Assembly: GCA_034638255.1 (NCBI GenBank)
Contig: JAWPGT010000013.1
Coordinates: 682,001-746,000 of the forward strand
Origin: Coprinus comatus
Taxonomy: Eukaryota > Basidiomycota > Agaricomycetes > Agaricales > Agaricaceae
Length of the DNA stretch: 64,000 nt
Direction of reading: 5' to 3'
Part shown: positions 19,549 to 63,559 of the stretch, piece after piece
Position numbering within the stretch: position 1 is the stretch's first letter
Layout of the letters: each line of letters starts with the position of its first letter
Notes under the pieces: model-generated
What the model was told of the DNA's origin: nothing
Database searches by the model: none
The model's input: the letters and a program-made list of their open reading frames with translations, nothing else
Program-made: the position numbers and the translations under genes

Positions 19549-19907
19549 TGTTATGAACTTGCCTATACCTCCATTTCGGTATAGACAATGCTACAATGGA
19601 CCTCTTCAAGGTGCTTATAGGAGGAGAATGTCTACTCTTACTGAGACTACTTTTGGGGGACAACCTCCACAGTACTCAGACTGTAGATCACAGGTGTTCC
19701 TTACTAGTAAGCTGTTTGTATAAGAGTTAGAGCTGACTCTGAGTTCTAGGTTTATCAAGGTAGAGGGCAGAACAATGATAAGGCAGATAGAACGAGAGTA
19801 ATGAAGAGTGTTAAGCTGAAGCTTAACCTCTGTTGCTGTCCATGTATTTATACAACTATGAGTACAGGTTGTAGGCTGTGCATGATACATGTGAGACAGG
19901 AAGGTGC
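19549..19907 (-). mobile_element. LTR-A, 3' part (truncated solo LTR)
   Basis: Begins TGTTATGAACTTGCCTATAC and matches the complete LTR-A copies at 39,944 and 49,728 up to GAGACAGGAAGGTG. At that point an LTR-D in inverse orientation is inserted, and the rest of LTR-A is not found on the other side. Confidence 0.75.
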
Positions 19908-25622: not shown

Positions 25623-25859
25623 GGGGCAGGAGACTAATAAAAATGGTAACAAACAGATACAACTAGTTGTTATAAATGGATACCACTAGTCATTTTAAAT
25701 AGGTACATATATATGTATCTTACTTGGTACATATATCTGTACTACCTTTTATACCTATATAGGTGTCCATTATTATTATACTAGGCAATAGAAATTAATT
25801 AATCAGAATTTTGTACACTTTTAAATCAGGAAAAGTCAAACAATTGAGCAAAGTTTTTA

Positions 25860-26115
25860 GCAGGATTTAACAATGTTTATGAAGAAATGTACTATAATTG
25901 GACAACTTATAGTTGATTTGTACAGAATAGTTGTAGAATCCTACTATATATTATAAAACTATGGTCAGTTTGTACAGAAAAGGTGTAGAATCCTACCATT
26001 CATTATGAAATTATAGTTGGTTTATACAGAAAAGGTGTAGAATCCTACTATATTTTATAAAACCATGGTCAGTTTGTACAGAAAAAAAGATGTAGAATCC
26101 TACTATATTTATAAA
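25860..26115. repeat. KDZ-1 left subterminal repeat array
   Basis: Four or so units of about 60 bp, each with TTTGTACAG near AGGTGTAGAATCCTAC and a TATTTTATAAAAC core. Their layout is like the arrays of KDZ-2. Such arrays are plausible transposase-binding sites; that role is inferred. Confidence 0.7.
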
Positions 26116-26213
26116 AAATATCTTGTTAAGAATAATTATATTATTGAAGTTTACTCATTTTTGATACAAAAGGCAAATGACAAATGTATTTAGTAGGAAT
26201 TATATGTATCTAT

Positions 26214-36419: not shown

Positions 36420-37600
36420 CATTGCTATAATATATATAAGGTAAGCTAGCCTTGGAGCTTGTCGCAAACTTCAACTTCTTTCCCCCATTTTTTTCTCCTG
36501 TGGCAGAAACCCTGTGTCAAGTTAAAACCATGCTGAGGGCCCCAGCTAATGGTCTTGTGCGGCGACTGCTACAGTTTTCTCCCTCTTTCCCTCTCAACTC
36601 TATTTTAATTCTCATTTTCTCTTCTACTCTTTAACTATCATATTAACCCCTTGCATTCTTAATCATTTTGTCCACTGTACCATATGGATTTAGGCAAGTT
36701 TTTCTTCATGTTTTATATTACTAATTATATTTTTATTTAGAATGTTTGATAGAATACCTAATCAATGGTTCTACATTTTGGCTCTTAGGTATGAAGTATT
36801 TGTCCAATTTCTCGATTTGTTACTAAGAAATCTCATTATATTTACTAGGAGTTATTTTGATCTAATATTGTACTTACTAATTTCTCTCTACTAGACATTG
36901 ATTTTTTGTCAACAATTTTCAAGTAAGTCATTAATATATAGCTTTAATTATCATACTAACTTTGTTTTGGTTTCTATAGGTCTTTTTCTATAACTATTTC
37001 TGATATTTTTCTAGTAAGTCATAACTTATCTTATGTTTTAAGTTCATATTAAATCTGTTGGTTAGTATACTTTGGCCAAAGAGTTTGTTGATAGCTATAG
37101 GTATATTTAGTTTATCTTCTAAGCTCAGCTGATAACTTTTGCTTCTAGATTATTGTTGTCGGACTATCTTGTTTCTAATGGTTTTAGTAAGTGATTATTT
37201 GTCTAGTCTTTTAAACTTAATATTAAATGTATTTGTTTGTATACTAGAGCTAAAGAGCTTGTGAATAGCAATAGGTATGTTTGGTATATCTTCTAGGCTT
37301 GGCTAACGACTTTTGTTTTTAGATTATTGGCCTCTTTCTATTATATTAATTTTTTTTTTACTTTTATTTGTATCCTTTACAATCGTTTTTGCTTATAAAA
37401 TTAGTGGACTGTGCACCCACTAGCTTTATAAGCAAAGGTTTTTTCATTTCTTTTTTGACTCATAATAAGAAGTTCACACAAACTTCTTATAATAAGTCTT
37501 TTTTTCTTTTTTTTGTGGTTATTTTTTATATATGTACTATATATATATACTCATCTAATTGTATTTTTTTGCTACATCACTACTCTAACCCTAACCCCAA
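36420..37600 (+). ncRNA. Candidate structured non-coding RNA of KDZ elements, copy 1
   Basis: Order: TATA-like ATATATATAAGG (36,430); a block shared with KDZ-2, CCCTGTGTCAAGTT and TGAGGGCCCCA (36,510-36,545); hairpin H1 (37,391-37,433, 17-bp arms GCTTATAAAATTAGTGG / CCACTAGCTTTATAAGC); hairpin H2 (37,457-37,498); T-rich spacer; then CTAACCCTAACCC at 37,585-37,597, complementary to TTAGGG telomere repeats. KDZ-2 carries the same parts in the same order on the corresponding strand. There is no protein frame. Transcription is not shown; the RNA interpretation rests on order and arm conservation. Confidence 0.4.
37036..37330. repeat. Tandem duplication, two units of about 170 bp
   Basis: The segment from TTTTAAGTTCATATTAAAT to TTCTAGATTATTG (37,036-37,155) recurs at 37,207-37,328 with about 75-80 percent identity by eye. 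Both end in ACTTTTG(C/T)TT(C/T)TAGATTATTG. Confidence 0.75.
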
Positions 37601-39943: not shown

Positions 39944-40471
39944 TGTTATAATCTTGCCTATACCTCCGTTTTGGTATAGACAATGCTATGATGGACCTCT
40001 TCAAGGTGCTTGTAGGAGGAGAACGTCTACTCTTACTGAGACTACTTTCAGGGGATGACCTCCACAGTACTTAGACTGTAGATCACAGGTATTCCTTACT
40101 AGTAAGCCGTTTGTGCAGGAGTTAGAGCTGACTCCGAGTTCTAGGGTTATCAAGGTAGAGGCAGAACAATGATAGCAAGTAGAATGGAAGACTTAGAGTA
40201 TTAAGCTGAAGCTTAATCTCTGTCACTGTCCATATATTTATACAACTACGATGTACAGGTTGTAGGTTGTGCATGATACATGTGAGACAGGGAGGTGAAA
40301 CTATCTACAGCTGAAACGGTGAGTGAAACGACAAGTGGAAGTCCGTAGAAAGTACTAGTCCAAGGCTATATGAAACAGTAGTCCAAGGCTATGTGAAACG
40401 AGTAAGAGAAAGTACACTATCGTCCATCATTAGTTCTAATGATTAGTCATGATAAATATGAAACCGTAACA
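39944..40471 (-). mobile_element. Solo LTR-A in the KDZ transposase gene
   Basis: 528 bp, TGTTATAATCTTGCC..GAAACCGTAACA, TSD CTGGC (39,939-39,943 and 40,472-40,476). A TATAAATA-type box is on the minus strand near 40,238. Confidence 0.95.
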
Positions 40472-41833
40472 CTGGCCTTTTATTTGGTTATGAAGAAACT
40501 GAAAATATATCGTCTCAAGAGCCTAGACTCCAAACACTTGTTTTACAAGATTCCTATACCAAGTTTGTAGATGGAGTGCTTACTGAAGCTATTCCATTCC
40601 ATCGCATTACTTCAACTATATATCTAGTTCAAGGATGGAACTCAAGAACTGCTACCTTAACTGTGAGTTTTTTTAATAGTATTGTTAATAATGATTAAAA
40701 GATTAAATATTAGGGCAAATGGTACCATTTACAATTGGATTACTCAACAAGTCCACCTATACCAATTTGTTATTGTGGTCTTGGTATATCGATAGGTCAA
40801 TGTGTCCATTCAAGATTTCTTATTGAATATCCTGAAAATTTTGACCAACCAGAAGGTTTGGCTTTAGCTTTGAATATTTAACTTTTTTTAACTATTTATT
40901 CTAGATCTTGATTCTGATATTATAATCTTTTCAAGAGAACAGATTGAAGATGGATTTTTGAATCTCTTTTCTGTTTCATCAAAAAATGACCCTCAATCAA
41001 CAAAAAGTCGGTCTATAACTTGTTATGAGGGCCCAGATAACGGTATTGGAAAATGGAGCTGTAATAAGGACCCTGGGTCAAAATGCTCTCATATCCAAAG
41101 ATCAATTCTTTATTTCAATCGAAGAGGTTTTTCTACACTATCTAAAGCTATTGATGATGAGTCACAAGGTAAAATGCTTATTTATTTAAACTTGTTAATA
41201 TATATTATTAACAATCATTTCATTAGATAATATACCAGCAGTTCAAGTTGCTGGGATTAGAACAAGCAAACCTATTTCCTATCAACCAATTCTCCCACCT
41301 TTATCATTTCAGATTCCATCAGATAACTCTAACTTATATATAGAAGCTCCTCCAACCACTAATATTCCTCCTCTCATCTTACTTCACCCATCATCAAGAT
41401 GTTCTTGTGGACAAATGTATGATAGTACATTTCCAGCATATGAGCTGGAATGTATTGTTTATGGTCTTACAAAAGCCATGAGAACAAAGATTCAACTTCA
41501 AAAATGCTTACTTTGCAATAAAAGTCGCTACCAGGCTATTGGACCAGATTGTTGGGAAAAAGGAATATTCAATCTCAACAACCATTCTTTATTTTCTCAT
41601 GATCTCCTTGAAGATTATACGATCTCCTATTCAACTTCTGAAACACCTTTTACTGCTTGGGTCAAAGTTATTTCGGCTAGATACCAAAAGTATCAAAGCT
41701 CTGTTGGATTTGTGGATGAGAAAATCTTTCGTTCTGCTTGGTTTGGATATGCTTCCCTTCTTCTACTTGAAGAAGATATGAAATGTCCAACCTGCAAAGA
41801 TTTTCCAGAAACAGTAATTTGGGATGGTGTTAC

Positions 41834-42142
41834 TGTCAGTGAATTATTATTGGGGTAAACTCGCAGATCTGATTCCTGTTATCACTTCTCTATGATATCC
41901 ATGTGCTACTGTTTGTCACCTGTCCTCCTCATGTTGTTCCCATCTGTCAATCTTTTATTATCACATGTGAATTACTTGTTGTATATATATGTCACATACA
42001 AGTCCTGTAGTCCTTGTCTGCTTACACCCGAATACAAGTCCTGTAGTCCTTGTCTGCTTACACCCGAATACAACGCTTGTGGCATCCTACACTCAGCTAA
42101 GGTGTTCACCTCAGTACTTTACATCTTCGTCATATTCCAACA
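41834..42142 (+). mobile_element. Solo LTR-F in the KDZ transposase gene
   Basis: 309 bp, TGTCAGTGAATTATTATTGG..ATATTCCAACA, TSD GTTAC (41,829-41,833 and 42,143-42,147). It contains a direct duplication of about 31 bp, CAAGTCCTGTAGTCCTTGTC (41,999 and 42,030). Excision joins VIWDGVT to LAFNKKNLQKSLYSPTT. Confidence 0.95.
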
Positions 42143-43559
42143 GTTACTTTGGCTTTTAACAAAAAAAACCTACAAAAATCACTCTACTCTCCTACAACTA
42201 TCTCCTCCGACTCTCTTATCCAAAATTGTTCATATCCCAAAAATCAAGCTCTAGTTACAGATGTAACTTGTCGGAAACTACTCAAGTCAATATTTTGCGA
42301 ACCACTCAACCTTATTACTCCTTCCAAAAACAAAAATTTGGAAGATGAATCAACAGATGATGAATCTCAAACTACAATTACAAAAGGCCTTCAAAAATTA
42401 CTATCAAAACTTTCAAACCTTCCAGTTCTTCAAAAAATGCTAGAAAAGGAAAATAAAAGTTTAGGTGCATTGTTCAACTGACATTGTACTGAATCTGCTT
42501 TATCTAAGTCAAAAGGGGGATGCTCTAAGGAAGTTGTTAGTTTTTTCTATCAGGTATTTATTGTTTATACATAAATTATCTATCAATTACTAATGTTTAT
42601 TGTAGCTTAGCAGTAACAATTCAATACTTCAAGTAATTAACTGACAATCACTATTCAAATTAGAGGATTTTCTCAAAAATCCCTCTGACAAAATAAAACT
42701 TGATCGGTTATGCTGTATACCATCTTTATTTTGGCTACTTAACTATGAAAGAAAACAGCAACTTTATTGGGATGACTCTATCCTTGGAGTTTGCCAATGG
42801 TTAAAAGAGAAATGTCAAGTTGCAATGGCAAAGATTATTAAATATTCTTCTCCTCCAATGATTGATAATATCCAAACTATAGATGGAGGGTGGCAAAAGG
42901 TAATGTAAACTTATTTTATAGTATTCTCAAGTTATCTTATCTTATAATTTATAGAGTGGTTGTAAATATAGTATACCACAAGTTTGGTATCGGCCACAAT
43001 ATCCTGGTCTAAAATATGAAGCAGAAAAAGAACCAAAGGAAAGAGGTGGAAAATGCAACAAGTATTATAGTACCTATGGTGAAAAAGGATTAACTGGAGG
43101 AATTATGTGTGCATGGTGTACACACTCGATATGCTATGGATATCATTGCATTCCCTCAAGTGAAGGAAGGAATGATGTTTTTTCAGCAATGATAACAAGA
43201 TGGCCTATAGCACCAAAATATGTCATTTATGACTTTGCATGCCAGCTTGGACCATATTGTCGAGCAAGAGAGCCAGACTTCTTCATGGATACATCATTTC
43301 TTATTGATAATTTCCATTCTACAGGACATAAAGCCTGTAGTGCTGCCTATTTTCTTAGGACTTACTCAGAAAGCCAACCATCACTAGGGTGACTAAACTC
43401 AAGTGCAGCTGAGTGTGGTAATGGAGAACTTACTTGGATAAGAAAATCAGTTAGATATATGGGTCAAGAAAGAGCCATTTTGTATACTGCTGTATTTCTT
43501 TCACTATGGAATAGGGCAAGAATTCTGAACCTTCTAAAAATATAGATAATCTTTAAATA

Positions 43560-43818
43560 TAATACTTTTCTACAACTCTGCTACTAAAATGACCTATGAT
43601 TTTATAAAAGATAGAAAGATTTTACTACTTTGTTGTACAAACTAACTATAACTCTGTTGAAAATAGTAAAATCTCACTACTTTGTTGTAGAAATCAACTA
43701 TGATTTTGGAAATAATGGTAGAATCTTACTACTTTGTTGTAGAAATCAACTACAACCTTATTGAAAATTGTAAAATCTTATTATGCTGTTGTACAAATCA
43801 GCTATGATTGTAGAAAAG
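43560..43818. repeat. KDZ-1 right subterminal repeat array
   Basis: Four units of about 65 bp, each with CTACTTTGTTGTA(G/C)AAA, TCAACTATGATTTT and TAAAATCTTACT-like parts. It mirrors the left array in spacing. Truncated by LTR-B at 43,819. Confidence 0.7.
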
Positions 43819-45821: not shown

Positions 45822-47762
45822 TGTCAGAATGGTAGAGAGTGATGTTGAGAATGAGAGTGAAGTTGAGAGAGAGTTAAGCTCAGACACAGACACAGACACA
45901 GAAAGAAGGGAATTGATTGGATAGTTTGGCTAAGACATGAGGGACTTATATATCTACCAGAACAAAGAACAACCAAAAGGGGAGAACAATAAGGACCCTT
46001 GCCAGCACACAAAGGGAATATGTAAGTAACATAATAAGGGAAAAGAACATTATGAAAGAGTCCAGAACATCAGGATAAGATAAGTGGAGTGATTAGGAAA
46101 GATGGATAAGATAAGGAGATATCTGGGAAAAACCTAACATACCCCCCTGACCAGATATATCTACAAAGAGTCCAAAAGAATGTGAAGAAGATAAAAGAAA
46201 ATGAAAAGAAGTAAAAAATCCATCAAATCAACAAAGGTCCATAACCAGGATAACTTCCATCAACAAACCTAACCCTAGCAGAGCAGCAGCAACAACAGGA
46301 GAAGATGGAGGGGATGATGAAGGAGAGGATGGAGGAGAGGAAAGGAAGTGGTATACTGAGTTAGCCTGTTGTTGAGTAGATGAGGAATTCCAAGAAGATG
46401 TTGATATGACCCAATCCTTTACTTCCTGAGGCATGTTGTACATGCACCTTGCAGCAATATGTCCAGACCTTCCACACCTATGACAATGACCTTCATTAGA
46501 AGGATTACACCACCTAAAACCTTTTCCATCAACAGGGACACTAGAAGAAGAGTTGGGAGTAGAATGGGAGAAATGATGAGGTTGAGAAGAATGATGAGGT
46601 TGAGAGGAGTGTTGGTGGTGAGATTTGGAATGAGGGTGTTGGTACTTCTTGTTGGTGACAGAGAATGCAGATTGAGAAGAGAAGGAGGAATCTGGGACAT
46701 CAGCAGAGGAGGCTGAAGAAATCATGACCTTGATCTTGTCCAGAGTGGGATATGTGTCTTGAGAGAGAATGTTGGATCTGATATGGTGGAAGGAAGAATC
46801 CAAATTCATGAGAAGAACATCAATAATCTCTGTATCAGAGATAGAACAACCCAAAGCCTTCAACTTTGAAGAAGCAGCAAGAACCTCCTGAATGTAAACA
46901 TCTACATGCCTGGAACCATCATGTCTAACACCATAAAATGCCTGCCTTGCCATCATCCTATGACCAAGAGTAGACTTCTCAAAATGAGCTTTAAGAGCAG
47001 CCCATGCCTTCTGACCAGATTTAACATCAGCCATGAGATACCAATGTTCAGGATGAACCTTGGAGAAAATAAGAGCACAGAGTTGATTGTCTAATAAGAC
47101 CTTGTCAGAGGTGGGTGATTTCTTGTCATCAGGAGAGAGTGAAGAGTTGTTGGGGTTGGATGAAGTGATATCTATTCCAGCAGCAAGGAAGACCATTTGC
47201 ATAGCCTGAGACCATATTGACCAGTTGTTAGAGGAGGTAAGGATAGGAATACTGTTGGAGATGGTGAGAGCAATAGAAGGGATAGACATTGTTGACAGTA
47301 GAATGATAGATTAGGGAATAGAGTTGAGAGATCAAAGTAGCAGAGTGATAGGATAGGGATATGTGAAAGATAAGGAATTAAAATGGCAGAGTTTCAGTAT
47401 AGGAGTGTGATGATTAGAGAGCAGTGAAGCCGGGGCCCATAACCTGTCAGAATGGTAGAGAGTGATGTTGAGAATGAGAGTGAAGTTGAGAGAGAGTTAA
47501 GCTCAGACACAGACACAGACACAGAAAGAAGGGAATTGATTGGATAGTTTGGCTAAGACATGAGGGACTTATATATCTACCAGAACAAAGAACAACCAAA
47601 AGGGGAGAACAATAAGGACCCTTGCCAGCACACAAAGGGAATATGTAAGTAACATAATAAGGGAAAAGAACATTATGAAAGAGTCCAGAACATCAGGATA
47701 AGATAAGTGGAGTGATTAGGAAAGATGGATAAGATAAGGAGATATCTGGGAAAAACCTAACA
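45822..47762 (-). mobile_element. Complete gag-only copia retrotransposon, young
   Basis: 1941 bp with two 318-bp LTR-G copies that read identical (45,822-46,139 and 47,445-47,762), flanked by TSD TGGCT (45,817-45,821 and 47,763-47,767). On the minus strand the 5' LTR is followed by GGTTATGGGCCCCGGC (primer-binding site), one gag frame, and GGTCAGGGGGGTA before the 3' LTR (polypurine tract). No protease, integrase or RT is encoded, so it needs pol from another element. Confidence 0.93.
46228..47289 (-). CDS. Copia Gag with zinc knuckle (intact)
   Basis: 353 codons from 47,289: MSIPSIALTISNSIPILTSS, NNWSIWSQAMQMVFLAAGID (the N-terminal gag helix), LWYLMAD-like HPEHWYLMADVKSGQKAWAA, and DVYIQEVLAASSKLKALGCS, typical of UBN2-type copia Gag. 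A His/Ser-rich linker precedes the zinc knuckle CHRCGRSGHIAARC (C-x2-C-x4-H-x4-C), then a Ser/Pro-rich end. No stops, unlike the older frames around it. It would package the element RNA; with no pol of its own it is a non-autonomous element. Confidence 0.88.
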   Translation of the reverse strand: MSIPSIALTISNSIPILTSSNNWSIWSQAMQMVFLAAGIDITSSNPNNSSLSPDDKKSPTSDKVLLDNQLCALIFSKVHPEHWYLMADVKSGQKAWAALKAHFEKSTLGHRMMARQAFYGVRHDGSRHVDVYIQEVLAASSKLKALGCSISDTEIIDVLLMNLDSSFHHIRSNILSQDTYPTLDKIKVMISSASSADVPDSSFSSQSAFSVTNKKYQHPHSKSHHQHSSQPHHSSQPHHFSHSTPNSSSSVPVDGKGFRWCNPSNEGHCHRCGRSGHIAARCMYNMPQEVKDWVISTSSWNSSSTQQQANSVYHFLSSPPSSPSSSPPSSPVVAAALLGLGLLMEVILVMDLC

Positions 47763-48426: not shown

Positions 48427-48744
48427 TGTTAGGTTTTTCCCAGATATCTCCTTATCTTATCCATCTTTCCTAATCACTCCACTTATCTTATCCTGATGTT
48501 CTGGACTCTTTCATAATGTTCTTTTCCCTTATTATGTTACTTACATATTCCCTTTGTGTGCTGGCAAGGGTCCTTATTGTTCTCCTCTTTTGGTTGTTCT
48601 TTGTTCTGGTAGATATATAAGTCCCTCATGTCTTAGCCAAACCATCCAATTAATTCCCTTCTTTCTGTGTCTGTGTCTGTGTCTGAGCTTAACTCTCTCT
48701 CAACTTCACTCTCATTCTCAACATCACTCTCTACCATTCTGACA
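48427..48744 (+). mobile_element. Solo LTR-G
   Basis: 318 bp, TGTTAGGTTTTTCCC..CCATTCTGACA, nearly identical to the LTRs of the gag-only copia but inverted. Flanks AGAGG and AGAAG differ at one base, consistent with a mutated TSD. Confidence 0.85.
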
Positions 48745-49019
48745 AGAAGAGTTGTGGTTGGATATTCTCTTTGGAGTTCTGGACTTGTAGCAGGTAGCTG
48801 ACTAACCAAAAGTGGTAACAAACAGGTACCACTAGTTGTTATAAATGGATACCACTAGTCGTTTCAAATAGGTACATACGTATGTATCTTACTTGGCACA
48901 TATATCTGTACCACCCTTTGTACATATATATGTATCCATTATTATTATGATAGGCAATAGGAATGAATTAATCTGAATTTTGTACACTTTTAGATTAGAG
49001 AAATTTGAAAAAAAAAAAT

Positions 49020-49560
49020 TGAAAAAAAAATTAGATGAAATATAGTAGATTTGTACAGGAAACTTGTACAAATCTACTACATTTCCAAGAATTGTGGTAG
49101 ATTTGTACAAGTAACTTGTAGGAATCTACTATATTTCTCATGATTGTAGCAGATTCCTACAGGTTACTTGTACAAATGTACTACAATTATCAAAAATGTA
49201 GTACATTTGTACAAGTTTCCTGTACAAATCTACCACAATTATGAGAAATGTAGTACATTTCTTCAGGAAACTTGTACAAATGTACTACAATTATGAGAAA
49301 TATAGTAGATTTCTTTAGACAACTTGTAGGAATAGACTACTATAATTATAAGAAATGTAGTACATTGGTACAAGTAACTTGTACAAATCTACTAAAATTA
49401 TTGGAAATATAGTAGATTTTTACTATATTTGCAAAAACTATACTATATTTCTCTAGAAAGTTAGAGTACAAATATACTATAATTCCCATAAATATACTAT
49501 AACTCCTATAAACATAGTAGATTTTTACAACTATAGTATACTAGATATTACTAAATATAT
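49020..49560. repeat. KDZ-2 left subterminal palindromic array
   Basis: About nine units of roughly 60 bp. Most are themselves inverted repeats around GTAGATTTGTACA / TGTACAAATCTAC with GGAAACT or GTAACT loops, separated by AATTATGAGAAATGT. Confidence 0.85.
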
Positions 49561-49727
49561 TCATTAGCAATTATCTCATAAATCAGTTATAAAAAAACTC
49601 TAACTTATTACTTTTTATATCATTTTTTATAGTTAATAAATACACTTATATATATTTGCTATCAATTTCTAGAAGTGATAGTTATATTTGGTGTAAAGTA
49701 CCTTATTAAGATATCTAGATTAATTAT

Positions 49728-50253
49728 TGTTATAATCTTGCCTATACCTCCATTTCGGTATAGATGATGCTACAATGGACCTTTTCAAGGTGCTCATAGG
49801 AGGAGAACATCTACTCTTACTGAGACTACTTTCAGGGGATGACCTCCACAGTACTTAGACTGTAGATCACAGGTGTTCCTTACTAGTAAGCTGTTGTGTA
49901 GGAGTTAGAGCTGACTCCGAGTTCTAGGGTTATCAAGGTAGAGGTGGAACAATGATAGCAAGTAGAATGGAAGACTTAGAGTATTAAGCTGAAGCTTAAT
50001 CTCTGTCACTGTCCATGTATTTATACAACTATGAGTACAGGTTGTAGGCTGTGCATGATATATGTGAGACAGGAAGGTGAAACTATCTATGGCTAAAACA
50101 GTAAGTGAAATGACAAGTGGAAGTCTGTAGAAAGTACTAGTCCGAGGCTATACAAAACACTAGTCCAAGGCTATGTAAAATGAGTAAGAGAAAGTACACT
50201 ATCATCCATCATTAGTTCTAATGATTAGTCATGATAAATATGAAACTGTAACA
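49728..50253 (-). mobile_element. Solo LTR-A in KDZ-2
   Basis: 526 bp, TGTTATAATCTTGCC..GAAACTGTAACA, TSD ATTAT (49,723-49,727; 50,254-50,258). Confidence 0.95.
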
Positions 50254-50258
50254 ATTAT

Positions 50259-51210
50259 TGAGTTGAGTGATTTGAATATGAACTTTAACAAGTTAGAATT
50301 GGCATTGGTAACAGAGTCAGGAATGTTAGTATTTGGTAAGTTAATAATATCATTAAAACAGTTGGAAATAGAATCAGAAAATAGTTCCCTTACAATATTT
50401 CTTCAATCTATTTATTCCATCTCAATTTTGTTAAAGACTAAGTTACTTAATTTACTAATATCAGTATGAAGGCTAACTTTCCTTTTTCAGTAGCAGTACT
50501 TAGTATAGATGCCCAGTAGGTTAATTCTTATCTCTTTGGATTTGGATCTCCTCACTAGATATGGTGTATTAGTTATATTATATTTTTGACTTAATATAAC
50601 TTCAGATTTCCTTGCTAGACATTATGCTAAGTTACTGATCCTCAAGTTGCCCTTACAATTATTGACTTCAAGTATTAGATTGTCTTCTAACTTATGATAT
50701 TTATATTACTAAAAGTCTTATTCCAATTCTAAGTCAATCCTCTACTCTTTGTTCTTACTCTACTTTTTTGGAACTTCTACTAATATCCTTCTATTATTTA
50801 GTCCTTTTGTAAGTAAGGCTAACTATAGTATTAGAAAGATATATAAGTTAAAGCTAAAGCCTCATCCCAACATTATTCATTTATACTCTAATCTCTGTTC
50901 TTAACATTACAGTAGTATACATATATAATATATAAAGTAGAGTAATTTCTATTATTATTTCTTAGTCTTTTAAGTCTTATTATATATGTATATAATTGTA
51001 ACAGTCAATGAAGTCTAATGAAAAAATAAATAAAGTAACTTGACTAAGAAATGAGTAAGATATATATGACGCTTTTTTGAAGTGTGACATCACACAGGGA
51101 TGTCACAAAAAGCAAAAATAATGTATAAGTCCCACTCAATCAAGAGTTATTTAATTAGTTGTTGTAATTATTAATGAAATCAATCAATAAACACTTGTAG
51201 AAATAAAATT
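50259..51210. other. AT-rich KDZ-2 interior, no gene
   Basis: No coding feature. It contains a hairpin TGTGACATC-CCTGTGT-GATGTCACA (minus strand, 51,086-51,110) flanked by AAAAAAGCG. Confidence 0.6.
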
Positions 51211-51930
51211 ATGCTCTTAGGGTTAGGGTTAGGGTTAGGACAAAGAAATAGCAAAAAATAATAAGTCATAGCCATATTCTACATACAAGTAAGAAAGAAA
51301 AAAAAAAAGAAAAAAAAACTTGAAATAAGAAGTCTGCACAAACTTCTTATTTCAAGTTAATAAAGAAAAGAAAAAGAAAAAAGAATAACTTATAAAGCTA
51401 GTGGTGTGCACTCCACTAACTTCACAAGTTACTTTACAAAAGAAAAAGTAAGTATAAAAAGATAACTAAGATACTGTAACTAATAATATAAAATAAAAAT
51501 CTGTCAAAAATGCGTCAGAAATGTTCAAAATAAATCAATAACATACCAAATTATAATAGCTTGATGTAATAATAGAATAAAATAAAAAACTTATCAAAAG
51601 ATTGTTAATTTCATTAAGTTAGAGAAAGAAAAACTTACAAGAGAAAGAAAGTAAACCAAACAAGTTGAAAAAGTAAAAGTATCTCCCAGACCTAAGGTCT
51701 GATGCCAGAATCTATCAAAACCTTTATAAAAGAGGCCAAGTAGGTACCACACAAGTGCATAATGTCTATTGGGGCCCTCAATAGCATTAATACAACTTGA
51801 CACAGGGCATCCTCCTACTTGAGATAGAGCATAAAGAGAAAGAGGGAACAGAGTAAGGGCAAAGTAAAGGAAAAGAATGAGAACTGATTTTTTGCTGTCT
51901 GAAACCCAAGGCTTTTATATCCCAGAAACA
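51210..51930 (-). ncRNA. Candidate structured non-coding RNA of KDZ elements, copy 2
   Basis: On the minus strand: TATA box GATATAAAAGCCTTGG (about 51,920); shared block CCCTGTGTCAAGTT and TGAGGGCCCCA (51,810-51,770); hairpin H1 (51,388-51,429), whose arms pair perfectly only if G.U pairs are allowed on this strand; hairpin H2 (51,317-51,358), a perfect 17-bp stem; then CCTAACCCTAACCCTAACCC (complement of TTAGGG repeats at 51,217-51,239). Same order and relative strand as KDZ-1. The expression and function are not shown. Confidence 0.4.
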
Positions 51931-52539
51931 TGCCAGCAAAAAAGTCAGAAGTCCAGAGCTAGTGCTGTCACTAGACCCTGAATTTAGTTAATGACACACA
52001 ATTGGTGCCATAGTTACCATTGTGTGCTGGCAGTATTGTGTAATGGTATATGTCATATGTAAATAATAAAAATGTTGTTACTTGCTCATTTCTGGGCCGA
52101 TTGGGCCGTGTAAGGGCTTGTTCGGTAGCGCTTGGAAATGCCGTTCCAGTGCTGTATTGGGCGTCCCAAGGCGATGATTACTCATGGTGTTATGCAACAT
52201 ATACTCTAGACCTCATAAAAATAGAATATCTCATGCTATAATGGTCCGAATTTAACCTTCTATTCACGTGCAAAACAGCATTCAGGAGTACTCCATGATG
52301 GTGTAAGGGGAATATGGCTTTAGCAATCAATTGTGGTGAAATAAGTCAAATTACAGATGATGTAAAGGATGATTAGTCAATATCTCAGCTAATACTGCAC
52401 CATACTAGATGCCTTTGTGCACCTGGAATGGCATTTCTGAGCGCTTCCATTTGAAGGTAGTTTGACGGGATTTGGCCAAGTTTTCATTGTGCTATAGTAC
52501 ATTCTGTATTTTGCATATATCATATTATTAGACTATTGG

Positions 52540-52745
52540 AAATTGCTAATTTGAGTACAAATGTACTATAGTTCTGGTAACTTTAGCAGATTCCTACAAG
52601 TTACTTGTACAAATCTACCACAATTATTGGAAATGTAGTAGATTTCTTCAGGAAACTTGTAGGAATCTACTATAATTATGAGAAATGTAGTAGATTTGTA
52701 CAAGTTTCCTGTACAAATCTACTATATTTCATCTAATTTTTTTTC
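52540..52745. repeat. KDZ-2 right subterminal palindromic array
   Basis: Three to four units with TGTACAAATCTAC / GTAGATTTGTACA, mirror image of the start of the left array. The last unit joins the AT-rich part of the inverted terminus. Confidence 0.85.
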
Positions 52746-53223
52746 AATTTTTCGAATTTCTCTAATCTAAAAGTGTACAAAATTCAGATTAATTCATTCC
52801 TATTGCCTATCATAATAATAATGGATACATATATATGTACAAAGGGTGGTACAGATATATGTGCCAAGTAAGATACATACGTATGTACCTATTTGAAACG
52901 ACTAGTGGTATCCATTTATAACAACTAGTGGTACCTATTTGTTACCATTTATATCAGTCTCCTGCCCCACTTGTAGATTGTTTCCGCTTTCTGTGACATC
53001 ACAATGTCACATCACATGTTACTGAAGTGTCCTGCAGACACATGAAGACTCTCTAGTCTAATACAAGTGTCTGCAGGTGAGTAGTTAAGAAGTTATTGTA
53101 TCTCTCTAGTCTAATACAAGTGTCTGCAGTGTTTGTGTTCTATCTCAGTCATTTCTCATTGGTTTCCTTCCATTCCTTTGCCATCGTGCTCGTCTTGTCA
53201 TCCTCTACGATCCTGTGCTTACA

Positions 53224-56263: not shown

Positions 56264-56932
56264 TGTTACAGTTTCATATTTATCATGACTAATCATTAGA
56301 ACTAATGATGGATGATAGTATACTTTTCTCTTACTCATTTCACATAGCCTTGGACTAGTAGTTTCTATGTGCTTCCACTTACCATTTCACTTATTGTTTC
56401 AGCAGTAGATGTTACAGTTTCATATTTATCATGACTAATCATTAGACCTAATGATGGACAATAGTGTACTTTCTCTTACTTGTTTCACATAGCCTTGGAC
56501 TAGTATTTTGTATAGCCTTGGACTAGTAGTTTCTACATGCTTCCACTTATTGTTTCAGCAGTAGATAGTTTCACCTCCCTGTCTCACATGTATCACACAC
56601 AGCCTACAACCTGTACTCGTAGTTGTATAAATACATGGACAGCAACAGAGATTAAGCTTCAGCTTAATACTCTAATGTCTAAGTCTTCCATTCTACTTCT
56701 TATCATTGTTCTGCCTCTACCTTGATAACCCTAGAACTCAGAGTCAACTCTAACTCCTGCACAAACAGCTTACTAGTAAGGAACACCTGTTATCTACAGT
56801 TTGAGTACTGTGGAGGTTGTCCCCTGAAAGTAGTCTCAGTAAGAGTAGATGTTCTCCTCCTATGAGCACCTTGAAGAGGTCCATTGTAGCATTGTCTATA
56901 CTGAAACAGAGGTATAGGCAAGAACTATAACA
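56264..56932 (+). mobile_element. LTR-A with duplicated head
   Basis: TGTTACAGTTTCATATTTAT at 56,264 recurs at 56,412, so the first 150 bp are present twice; it ends AGAACTATAACA. 669 bp against about 527 in other copies. Flanks CACTT and TTGTA do not match. Confidence 0.85.
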
Positions 56933-62143: not shown

Positions 62144-63559
62144 GTTTTGACATATTTGAGGGTTCCTTTGGGGATAGTGTGTCTGACGATAGTCTCGTTC
62201 AGACTGAAGTATGTGGCTGGCTGCACAGGCAGCACCTTTCCATGCTTCATAAGTATCAGCTGGCATGGCTCTGATGGCATACATTCCAATTGTGGGTTCA
62301 AGACCCATTTTGAAGAGATGGATTTTGAGTGTGTCTTGTGTAATTTGTGCCTCAAGTGTGAGGGCTTTGAATTCTGTGATGTATTTGTGTATATTGCACA
62401 TTCCTTGTTTAAATTTGGTAATCTTGGCCATGGCATCTGAGACATGGGTGGATGAGTGGAAGCTGGTGTCCATATGTTATGGTTTCATATTTATCATGCT
62501 TAATCATTAGAACTAATGATGGATGATAGTGTACTTTCTCTTACTTGTTTTGTATTGCCTTGGGCTAGTGTTTCATATAGCCTCAGACTAGTAGTTTCTA
62601 CATGCTTCCACTTGTTGTTTCAGCAGTAGATAGTTTCACCTTCCTGTCTCACATGTATCACACATAGCCTACAACCTGTACCATAAGTTGTATAAATACA
62701 TGGACAGTGACAGAGATTAAGCTTCAGCTTAATACTCTTGTTTGTTCTCTATCTTGTTCATTCCCCTCTACTTGATAATCCTAGAACTCAGAGTCAGCTC
62801 TAACTCTTATATGAATGGCTTACTAGTAAGGAACACCTGTGATCTACAGTCTGAGTACTGTGGAGGTCATCCCCTGAAAGTAGTCTCAGTAAGAGTAGAC
62901 ATTCTCCTCCTATGAGCACCTTGAAGAGGTCCATCATAGCATCATCTATACTGAAACAGAGGTATAGGCAAGTTCATAACACCATAGCTGTGACAAATGC
63001 AGTGAAGGTTCCAAAGTTGAATGCTTTGGTGGTATCATCATATTTGCTTTCTGTAAATGCATGTGCCCATGTGGCTGCTGGTCCAACCATAAGGGAAAGA
63101 GTATACAAGATTTTTGTTTCACTGTCATGGAATCGGGCTTGGTCTGCTGCATAGTAGATTCCAATGTGTTGCTTCCAATGAATGACTGTAGGATGCTGTG
63201 TCTCCAGCAAATGGTGGGGGTACTGGGAGTTTGAGTGCTGGGACAGTGGTTGCATTGGGCATCTTTGGATTTGAGCTTGATGAGCTGTTTGTAGTAGGTG
63301 TGGAGGGATTTGGTGGAGCTGGGGGTAATGTCTGAGTATGTGGAGTTGTTGGATTGACAGGAGTTGGGATCCTTGGTGGGACTGGAGTTGGGATAGTAAC
63401 TTGAGGTCTTTGAGGAGTGATTGGCAGGGGGTCATTGTCTGAGTCTCTGTATTGTTGCTTTGAAGTTTCACTTGATTGTGAACTTTCTTGTTGTATAGGG
63501 CTAGGTTCTGAGAAAAGCTGAGGTTGGGGAGGTACAGGTGGTTGTGTATAAAATGACAA
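62144..63559 (-). pseudogene. Ty3-type gag ('gypsy-E'), broken
   Basis: The start at 63,559 reads MSFYTQPPVPPQPQLFSEPS; Pro/Thr/Ser-rich N-terminus. PVPPPFAGDTASYSHSLEAT begins the gag core, a frameshift follows, then GIYYAADQARFHDSETKILY and LSLMVGPAATWAHAFTESKY. After the solo LTR-A the frame continues STHVSDAMAKITKFKQGMCN, IHKYITEFKALTLEAQITQD and the beginning of a zinc knuckle, QICQNC, where LTR-H cuts it. Confidence 0.8.
62475..62981 (+). mobile_element. Solo LTR-A in gypsy-E gag
   Basis: 507 bp, TGTTATGGTTTCATATTTAT..AAGTTCATAACA, TSD CCATA (62,470-62,474; 62,982-62,986). Confidence 0.95.

What the first reader, a model, noticed from the sequence alone, without database searches (positions are those of the whole stretch)
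36420..37600. Telomere-complementary, structured non-coding module in KDZ-1
A TATA box, a conserved block (CCCTGTGTCAAGTT..TGAGGGCCCCA), two hairpins and a 13-nt CTAACCCTAACCC run occur in this order. The last is exactly the kind of sequence that serves as a telomerase RNA template in TTAGGG organisms. H1 has G-C at its base (GCTT..AAGC) where KDZ-2 has A-U (ACTT..AAGT), a change that preserves pairing. Options: a transposon-borne telomerase-RNA-like gene, a telomere-protein binding or targeting site, or chance telomere repeat seeding. I infer, and cannot show, an RNA.
Basis: partly seen in the sequence, partly recalled or inferred. Interest (0 to 1): 0.88.

Follow-up and report, generated by a model that had tools for sequence, protein, structure and literature searches.

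The report
Transposon RNA gene with U1-like ending
A family of fungal jumping genes appears to carry its own gene for a folded, non-protein-coding RNA, and the telomere-like stretch at its end is probably not a telomerase template but an end signal like the one behind the fungus's U1 splicing RNA genes.

Summary
Three diverged families (A = KDZ-2 type, B, C = KDZ-1 type) share one layout: TATA, a 5' domain with loop AGGGCCC, an intron-like stretch, hairpins H1 and H2, T6-GC-N12, CTAACCCTAACCC. H1 (8 of 19 pairs) and H2 (3 of 18) change on both sides, and their loops are complementary and change together (a kissing loop): very probably an RNA. The 5' domain pattern has 24 loci (control 0); 21 carry the run. 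In families A and B the RNA lies at a near-constant distance from one terminal repeat; KDZ-2 is a 4.2 kb copy without recognised transposase that keeps it. The telomerase reading fails: all 4 U1 snRNA candidates carry the same run 24-30 nt past their last stem, with the same GC-N12 spacing; U2 (0/4), U4 (0/1) and U5 (0/1) do not. T6-N4-26-CTAACCCTAAC occurs at 28 loci: 25 transposon RNA copies, 3 U1. Best reading: a transposon-borne, probably spliced Pol II non-coding RNA gene with a U1-type 3' end signal. Against: no snRNA-type promoter element, few independent families, no expression data; its job is inferred.

The parts
36431..36439 (+). TATA box of the KDZ-1 (family C) RNA gene; RNA start expected near 36464
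   Evidence: sequence; the 4 U1 candidates start exactly 33 nt after TATATAA; the start in KDZ-1 is inferred
36498..36574 (+). 5' domain: stems P1, P2, P3 and the 7-nt loop AGGGCCC (36536-36542), which holds the palindrome GGGCCC
   Evidence: P1, a P2 stem, P3 and the loop appear in the folds of 10 of 10 rows, details between P1 and P2 differ; P2 and inner P3: 96.0% of cells paired, 5 of 15 pairs changed on both sides; energy only modestly below shuffles, z -2.25
37275..37322 (+). intron-like stretch GTATGT..GCTAAC..TTTTTAG (a second one at 36923-36979)
   Evidence: families A and B also have one upstream of H1; the C copy L002 shows only the counterpart of the second
37389..37435 (+). hairpin H1: 19 pair positions, one mismatch in this copy; loop ACTGTGCAC 37408-37416
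37457..37498 (+). hairpin H2: 18 pair positions, two mismatches in this copy; loop CACACA 37475-37480, complementary to the H1 loop over 4 nt
37563..37597 (+). 3' signal: ATTTTTTTG, GC at 37571-37572, 12 nt, then CTAACCCTAACCC (37585-37597)
   Evidence: shared with the 3' flanks of the U1 candidates
25623..25847 (+). left terminal inverted repeat of KDZ-1, terminus GGGGCAGGAG; right end of KDZ-1 not found
41199..41858 (+). frame with the CxC4 domain of KDZ transposases, same strand, 3.6 kb downstream of the run
   Evidence: Pfam PF18717, E 5.7e-42
42955..43389 (+). frame with part of the KDZ transposase core
   Evidence: Pfam PF18758, E 0.0002, 21.6 bits, under the curated cut-off of 26.6; not listed by the genome search
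48791..52968 (.). KDZ-2: 4.2 kb element; 203-nt inverted repeats 99% complementary (48810-49012, 52748-52950), 8-bp duplication ACTTGTAG at 48783-48790 and 52969-52976; the RNA gene is the only gene recognised in it
   Evidence: longest stop-to-stop frame 106 aa (its short frames were not scanned against Pfam)
51913..51919 (-). TATA box of the KDZ-2 (family A) RNA gene
51734..51822 (-). 5' domain of KDZ-2 RNA
51386..51431 (-). H1 of KDZ-2 RNA
51317..51358 (-). H2 of KDZ-2 RNA; loop TGTGCA pairs with 6 nt of the H1 loop
51217..51238 (-). run of KDZ-2, 22 nt, one repeat unit longer than in the other A copies read

Best explanation
KDZ-type DNA transposons of this fungus carry a gene for a structured non-coding RNA of about 0.6-1.2 kb. 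RNA polymerase II starts about 33 nt after a TATA box. The RNA folds a 5' domain whose loop holds the palindrome GGGCCC, loses at least one short intron, and ends with two long hairpins whose loops kiss. Transcription or processing stops at a bipartite signal, T6-GC-N12-CTAACCCTAACCC, that also stands behind the host's U1 snRNA candidates. So the telomere-like run is an end signal (read as RNA, or as DNA bound by a TTAGGG-binding protein that halts the polymerase), not a template. The RNA most likely works in trans as a nuclear ribonucleoprotein that helps the element: short copies without recognised transposase keep the RNA gene at the same place, while the shortest TIR-only copies lack it, so it is not an end needed in cis. 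Shown by sequence: architecture, paired changes, place in the element, sharing of the end signal with U1. Inferred: transcription, splicing, how the end signal acts, action in trans.
For: Three families with the same order of parts. Pairs changed on both sides: H1 8 of 19, H2 3 of 18, kissing loop 2 of 6, 5' domain 5 of 15; in all four, cells changed on both sides and the covariation score exceed all 500 shuffles. 5' domain pattern 24 loci, reversed control 0; 21 of 24 carry the run. T6-N4-26-CTAACCCTAAC: 28 loci, 25 RNA copies and 3 U1 candidates, control 0. All 4 U1 candidates have the run; between the three unrelated contexts the sequence beyond it is 18-38% identical, the 15-mer 100%. GC at -14 in 24 of 26 RNA copies and in 4 of 4 U1. 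KDZ-2 against L046: 5' domain 96%, H1 92%, H2 97%, against 42-89% in the other segments. Intron-like stretches on the sense strand, none on the other strand in 8 bodies. Near-constant distance to the upstream TIR in 7 A copies and 3 of 4 B copies.
Against: No transcript was seen. The element TGGTCCGTGCGC, present at 9 of 10 snRNA genes examined, is absent from the 8 transposon promoters scored, so this is not a full snRNA-type gene; the best C-family site, TGGTCTAGACCC, keeps only part of it. The run is not behind U2, U4 or U5, so it is no general snRNA end signal. Rfam's U1 model finds nothing in this genome, so U1 is named by features. Three families mean few independent events. For H2, the kissing loop and the 5' domain the number of pairs changed on both sides does not exceed shuffles (389, 425 and 215 of 500 reach it). 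H2 pairs 5, 7, 8, 9 are broken in 3, 3, 6, 3 of 12 distinct rows. Sliding the kissing pairs by -2 still pairs 75.3%. 5' domain energies are weak (z -2.25, -1.93, -0.50). Between close copies (KDZ-2 and L040; KDZ-1 and L002) the structured parts are not clearly better kept than the rest. Intron-like counts are reached by 4 to 43 of 200 shuffles. In family C the distance to the TIR differs (10.9 and 16.9 kb). TIR-only copies show that moving does not need the RNA in cis.
Confidence: 0.62

Rival explanations
1. The run is a double-stranded DNA site for a TTAGGG-binding Myb-type protein that acts as a roadblock terminator or insulator behind U1 and behind the transposon RNA gene; nothing at RNA level reads it.
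For: Telomeric sequence, 13-22 nt, at the same spacing behind two unrelated kinds of gene. In yeast, Tbf1 and Rap1 bind telomere-like sites inside chromosomes (recalled; related papers seen only in the listing).
Against: The T6 and GC 14 nt upstream would not be needed for a plain DNA site. All 28 gene-linked hits of the 15-mer point the same way relative to the gene, which a plain roadblock need not.
Confidence: 0.3
2. The module is the long structured 5' leader of the transposase mRNA (translation or splicing control), not a separate gene.
For: Same strand as the transposase frames in KDZ-1, CxC4 lying 3.6 kb downstream; intron-like stretches as in mRNA genes; no snRNA-type upstream element.
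Against: KDZ-2 and the copies on C33, C26 and C83, bordered by both TIRs in 4.0-4.6 kb, keep the module although the genome search lists no KDZ match on these four contigs (one search also missed the KDZ-1 frame); a U1-type signal closes the module.
Confidence: 0.13
3. The hairpins are small-RNA precursors or decoys that occupy the host silencing machinery.
For: H1 and H2 are hairpins of 18-19 pair positions, 91-94% of cells paired.
Against: The two loops change together, which a Dicer substrate does not need; the conserved 5' domain is not explained.
Confidence: 0.12
4. Transposon-borne telomerase RNA or template mimic.
For: A run of 13-22 nt suits a TTAGGG template; yeast-like RNA size; A-U6/7-G before the run resembles an Sm site.
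Against: Same run behind 4 of 4 U1 candidates, outside that RNA; in Ustilaginales the pseudoknot lies between template and Sm-like domain (PMC10035886, passages), here the run lies 3' of the Sm-like word; longest other telomere-like word 7 nt in 8 bodies.
Confidence: 0.03
5. Chance or repair-born telomere repeats in a transposon.
For: Repeat-unit length change in KDZ-2.
Against: Three families and U1 share run, orientation and spacing; 28 of 31 exact 15-mers of the genome are in these contexts.
Confidence: 0.01

Closest known systems
U1 snRNA candidate genes of the same genome, 3' flank
   Same: T-run, GC, 12 nt, CTAACCCTAACCC in the same order and spacing, same strand
   Different: U1 has the upstream element TGGTCCGTGCGC and is 175-176 nt; a genome search with U1 matches none of the transposon copies
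Metazoan snRNA 3' box (recalled)
   Same: works like it: short element a few tens of nt past the RNA
   Different: other sequence; here found behind U1 and the transposon RNA but not U2, U4, U5
Fungal telomerase RNA (S. cerevisiae TLC1; Ustilaginales ter1, PMC10035886, passages)
   Same: long non-coding RNA, possible Sm site near the end, telomere-complementary word nearby
   Different: order of parts reversed; run outside the structured part and shared with U1
KDZ elements such as Cryptococcus KDZ1 (PMC12810828, passages: about 11 kb, 241-bp TIRs, 8-bp TSDs)
   Same: KDZ transposase with a CxC domain, TIRs of about 200 bp, 8-bp duplication
   Different: the words noncoding and non-coding do not occur in that paper's main text; here an RNA gene lies inside the element
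Fanzor/TnpB omega RNA (recalled)
   Same: works like it in being an RNA gene carried by a transposon
   Different: no nuclease domain among the 18 distinct window frames scanned with Pfam; RNA not at the element end

Membership tests
Telomerase RNA | template inside the RNA, upstream of pseudoknot and Sm site | tested here: not met
   run lies downstream of H1, H2 and the Sm-like word; longest other telomere-like word 7 nt in 8 bodies
Telomerase RNA | telomere-complementary word that is particular to this RNA | tested here: not met
   identical run behind 4 of 4 U1 candidates
Telomerase RNA | binds TERT and templates repeats | not testable with these tools
   needs biochemistry
snRNA-type gene | upstream element TGGTCCGTGCGC 22-25 nt before TATA | tested here: not met
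   9 of 10 snRNA genes examined have it; 0 of 8 transposon promoters scored
snRNA-type gene | 3' signal as behind U1 | tested here: met
snRNA-type gene | Sm-binding site | tested here: inconclusive
   A-T6/7-G precedes the run in the 26 copies, but U1 has a T-run at the same place outside its RNA
KDZ transposon | KDZ transposase and CxC domain | tested here: met
   KDZ-1 only: CxC4 E 5.7e-42, KDZ E 0.0002, below the curated cut-off; not shown for family B
KDZ transposon | TIRs and 8-bp target duplication | tested here: met
Any Rfam family | covariance model match at gathering score | tested here: not met
   no match in 10 loci; only sub-threshold matches in one copy each of A, C, B

The most novel reading that the evidence does not exclude
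A cut-and-paste DNA transposon superfamily of mushrooms encodes its own spliced, Sm-type nuclear RNA: it has taken the host's U1 3' end signal, dimerises or docks through an invariant GGGCCC loop, closes its end with kissing hairpins, and acts in trans on U1-linked steps (splicing or end formation) or on silencing, so that transposase-less copies survive by supplying the RNA. In addition, this fungal lineage uses telomere-repeat sequence as the end signal of U1.
Probability: 0.22. Interest if true: 0.92.

Novelty: new variant of a known kind. Interest (0 to 1): 0.73.

Why it matters
Structured RNA genes inside eukaryotic cut-and-paste transposons are hardly known outside the TnpB/Fanzor world (recalled). 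A covarying RNA kept by short copies without recognised transposase, with an end signal shared with U1, would be a new player in how such elements persist. It also points to an unsuspected use of telomere-repeat DNA, as the 3' signal of U1 genes. None of the titles and abstracts listed (12 of 36 papers; 10 of 199) treats snRNA ends in filamentous basidiomycetes; more was not seen. Both parts can be tested with ordinary RNA mapping.

Tried and rejected
Telomerase template: rejected (U1 flanks, order of parts, no other template-like word above 7 nt). Chance telomere repeats: rejected (tally). Spliceosomal 3' cleavage with CUAAC as branch site: considered; by eye no 5' splice site near the U1 end; left out. 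Coding block: rejected, the distances inside the 5' block differ between families by 1 to 3 nt (counted by eye). snRNA-type promoter: looked for, not found. Rfam: nothing above threshold. Relatives in viral contigs: the 5' pattern gave 12 hits whose printed flanks show none of the other features by eye, taken as chance; the 3' pattern gave 0. Models R1 and R2 were built but could not be run on this genome. One search printed only part of the self-comparison and was repeated; word positions printed were offset and were replaced.

Literature: searches (listings of 8 to 15 papers; one search found none); passages seen in PMC12810828, PMC12730594, PMC10035886 and PMC7151599; all others seen in listings only. 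None of what was seen reports an RNA gene in KDZ elements or this U1 end signal; this is no proof of absence. Statements marked recalled come from no call.

Full report
WHAT IS THERE. The window lies in a 35,683,925-base genome in 134 contigs. Of 25 relatives of one host protein, three carry organism names in the listing: Mycena, Trametes and Boletus (7,997 candidates scored), so the host is probably an Agaricomycete.

COPIES. The 3' module of KDZ-1 finds copies on C13, C65, C126 and C99 plus distant ones; that of KDZ-2 finds ten A-type loci; the 15-mer CTAACCCTAACCCTA has 31 hits. Reading the flanks sorts the 31 into 11 hits at 10 A loci, 13 at B loci, 4 at U1 candidates and 3 others (L009, L022, L037). 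B loci were found through the run itself, so they do not test how constant it is. The test that does not use the run starts from the 5' domain: pattern CCCTGNNTCA-N8-34-GAGGGCCCC has 24 hits, 0 for the reversed control. By sequence all 24 are A, B or C (8, 13 and 3), and 21 carry the run; C11:776488 (A), C27:346644 (B) and C126 (C) do not, C126 being cut short before it. Conversely, of 27 loci with a 3' module or run, five show no exact 5' pattern: C9, C22, C85 (A), C65:58781 (B) and C99 (C). The spaced pattern T6-N4-26-CTAACCCTAAC has 33 hits at 28 loci, control 0: 10 A, 13 B, 2 C and 3 of the 4 U1 candidates, the fourth having only five T.

STRUCTURE. H1, 13 rows, 9 distinct: 93.5% of cells paired, 8 of 19 pairs changed on both sides (1 of 500 shuffles reaches it), covariation score 0.360 against a shuffle mean of 0.178 (0/500); slid versions pair 31-47%. 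H2, 12 distinct rows: 91.6% paired, 3 of 18 pairs changed on both sides, the base pair being A-U in A, G-C in C and C-G in B; the number of changed pairs is no more than in shuffles (389/500), cells changed on both sides are (0/500); pairs 5, 7, 8 and 9 are broken in 3, 3, 6 and 3 rows. The H1 and H2 loops are complementary: 6 nt in A, 5 in B, 4 in the window copy of C and 5 in L003; random loops reach 4, 5, 6 in 5.9%, 0.9% and 0.09% of trials; the C H1 loop also matches the A H2 loop over 5 nt. Pair 3 of the kiss is C-G in A, U-A in C and A-U in B; pair 4 is A-U or G-C; 89.7% of cells paired, against 75.3% for the slide of -2 and 17-45% for the others; the number of changed pairs is no more than in shuffles (425/500), the score is (0/500). 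L047 and L048 lose one pair. In the 5' domain P1, a P2 stem, P3 and the loop AGGGCCC appear in the folds of 10 of 10 rows, with stems of different sequence; on the RNAalifold stems 96.0% of cells pair and 5 of 15 pairs are changed on both sides (215/500 shuffles reach that number; cells and score 0/500). Folding energy supports H1-H2 strongly (z -6.72, -9.58, -7.78) and the 5' domain weakly (z -2.25, -1.93, -0.50). With three families the paired changes stand for few independent events, though at many positions.

CONSTRAINT AND DIRECTION. KDZ-2 against the diverged A copy L046: 5' domain 96%, H1 92%, H2 97%; elsewhere 62 and 87% upstream, 89% from TATA to P1, 65, 81 and 86% between the domains, 77% linker, 68% tail, 81% end signal (lowered by the extra repeat unit), 80, 43 and 42% downstream. 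Close pairs show no clear contrast: KDZ-2 and L040 have 5' domain and H1 at 100% but H2 at 92%, with flanks at 94-98%; KDZ-1 and L002 have 95-100% from upstream to the run. Stretches with a 5' splice site, branch site and 3' splice site occur 1-2 times per body on the sense strand and not on the other in 8 bodies; 4 to 43 of 200 shuffles reach the same count, so each alone is weak. One lies upstream of H1 in each family, and in A the pieces change between equally good forms (GTATGT/GTAAGT, CTGAC/CTGAT, ACAG/GTAG).

THE RUN AND U1. Four genes begin ATACTTACC exactly 33 nt after TATATAA, carry an Sm-like AATATTTTC and a final stem-loop, and are 175-176 nt long; a genome search finds these four and no more. 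I name them U1 by these features; Rfam's U1 model finds nothing in the genome or in L010. All four have CTAACCCTAACCCTA 24-30 nt after the final stem, with GC 14 nt before it. Between the three unrelated contexts the sequence beyond the run is 18-38% identical; L016 and L017 are an inverted pair at 76%. U2 (4 genes), U4 and U5 (one each) have no such run in 150 nt; U5 has a single CTAAC. The transposon RNAs have GC at -14 in 24 of 26 copies; L002 has one base more and L048 has GT (L003, cut short, was left out). TGGTCCGTGCGC or TGGTCCGTGCAC stands at U1, U2 and U4 (9 of 10 genes examined, U5 by eye) but at none of 8 transposon promoters scored, the nearest being TGGTCTAGACCC in C at -1.7 bits against 21.5-23.7. 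So the transposon gene shares the end of U1, not its promoter.

THE ELEMENT. KDZ-2 spans 48791-52968 with 8-bp duplication ACTTGTAG, the length reported for Zisupton (PMC12730594, passages) and for Cryptococcus KDZ1 (PMC12810828, passages). A TIR search gives 43 places (75 first-look candidates, 40 scored, so a lower bound). A copies on C13, C33, C26 and C83 have both TIRs in 4.0-4.6 kb; C89, C128, C9 and C84 one; C22 and C85 none listed. The RNA 5' domain lies 1.1-1.5 kb from the upstream TIR in the 7 A copies where both are seen, and 8.3-8.4 kb in three of four B copies (C78, C27 twice; 10.0 kb on C24); in C it is 10.9 kb in KDZ-1 and 16.9 kb on C126. One B copy on C27 lies between two TIRs 17 kb apart; for nine of 14 B loci I could assign no TIR. 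KDZ-1 has its left TIR at 25623, the RNA gene at 36.4-37.6 kb and transposase frames at 41.2-43.4 kb on the same strand; its right end was not found. TIR pairs only 0.6-0.9 kb apart on C24 (two), C19, C99 and C89 hold no hit of the RNA patterns. PF18758 has 86 matches in the genome, none listed on C13, and B copies are not always near one, so I do not claim that B elements encode the KDZ transposase.

MECHANISM. Shown: a multi-family, covarying RNA architecture inside TIR-bordered elements, ending in a signal shared with U1. Inferred: Pol II start at TATA, splicing, end formation at the run, a nuclear RNA acting in trans. The run could be read as RNA or as DNA bound by a telomere-repeat protein; I cannot tell these apart. 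A-U6/7-G before the run could be an Sm site, but U1 has a T-run at the same place outside its RNA, so this stays open. In yeast telomerase RNA the Sm site sets the 3' end (PMC7151599, passages).

CORRECTION. My notebook gives the KDZ-2 right end as 52972; the right value is 52968. It also counts 29 loci; the recount is 28.

Noticed in passing
L010, L011, L016, L017, L093-L097: snRNA genes of this genome share an upstream element TGGTCCGTGC(G/A)C 22-25 nt before TATA: U1 4 of 4, U2 4 of 4, U4 1 of 1; U5 lacks it by eye.
   Followed up: yes
L016/L017 (G000:C17:419682-420645): Two U1 candidate genes stand back to back as an inverted pair, their runs about 0.95 kb apart.
   Followed up: partly
L020 and L012, between 5' domain and H1: Family B bodies hold several hairpin-like units of the type CCTGGAGGTTTTGTACTTCCAGG followed by TTCCTGTTTGCAGGAA; not seen in the A and C bodies printed there.
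   Followed up: no
25890-26116, 43606-43816, 49029-49423, 52555-52726: 52-bp tandem repeats, in KDZ-2 partly self-complementary, sit near the ends of KDZ-2 and the known or likely ends of KDZ-1.
   Followed up: partly
36997-37155 and 37172-37329: The C-family body holds a tandem duplication, 76% identical, that includes splice-site-like words.
   Followed up: no
G000:C19:308213-309503: A short TIR pair (308519-309133) lies between two pieces of one KDZ match, as if a TIR-only copy had inserted into a KDZ gene.
   Followed up: no
whole genome: No long CCCTAA array shows: the only overlapping 15-mers are in KDZ-2, so the assembly lacks telomere ends or the telomere repeat differs. The reversed control pattern is commoner, 69 against 31.
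   Followed up: no
45822-46121, 47445-47744, 48427-48746: Three about 320-nt repeats, 99-100% identical, around and beside a copia-type gag frame look like young LTRs next to KDZ-2.
   Followed up: no
39944-40471, 49728-50253, 56410-56932, 62475-62981, 19549-19906: A repeat of about 0.5 kb occurs five times in the window (once shortened), once inside KDZ-2.
   Followed up: no
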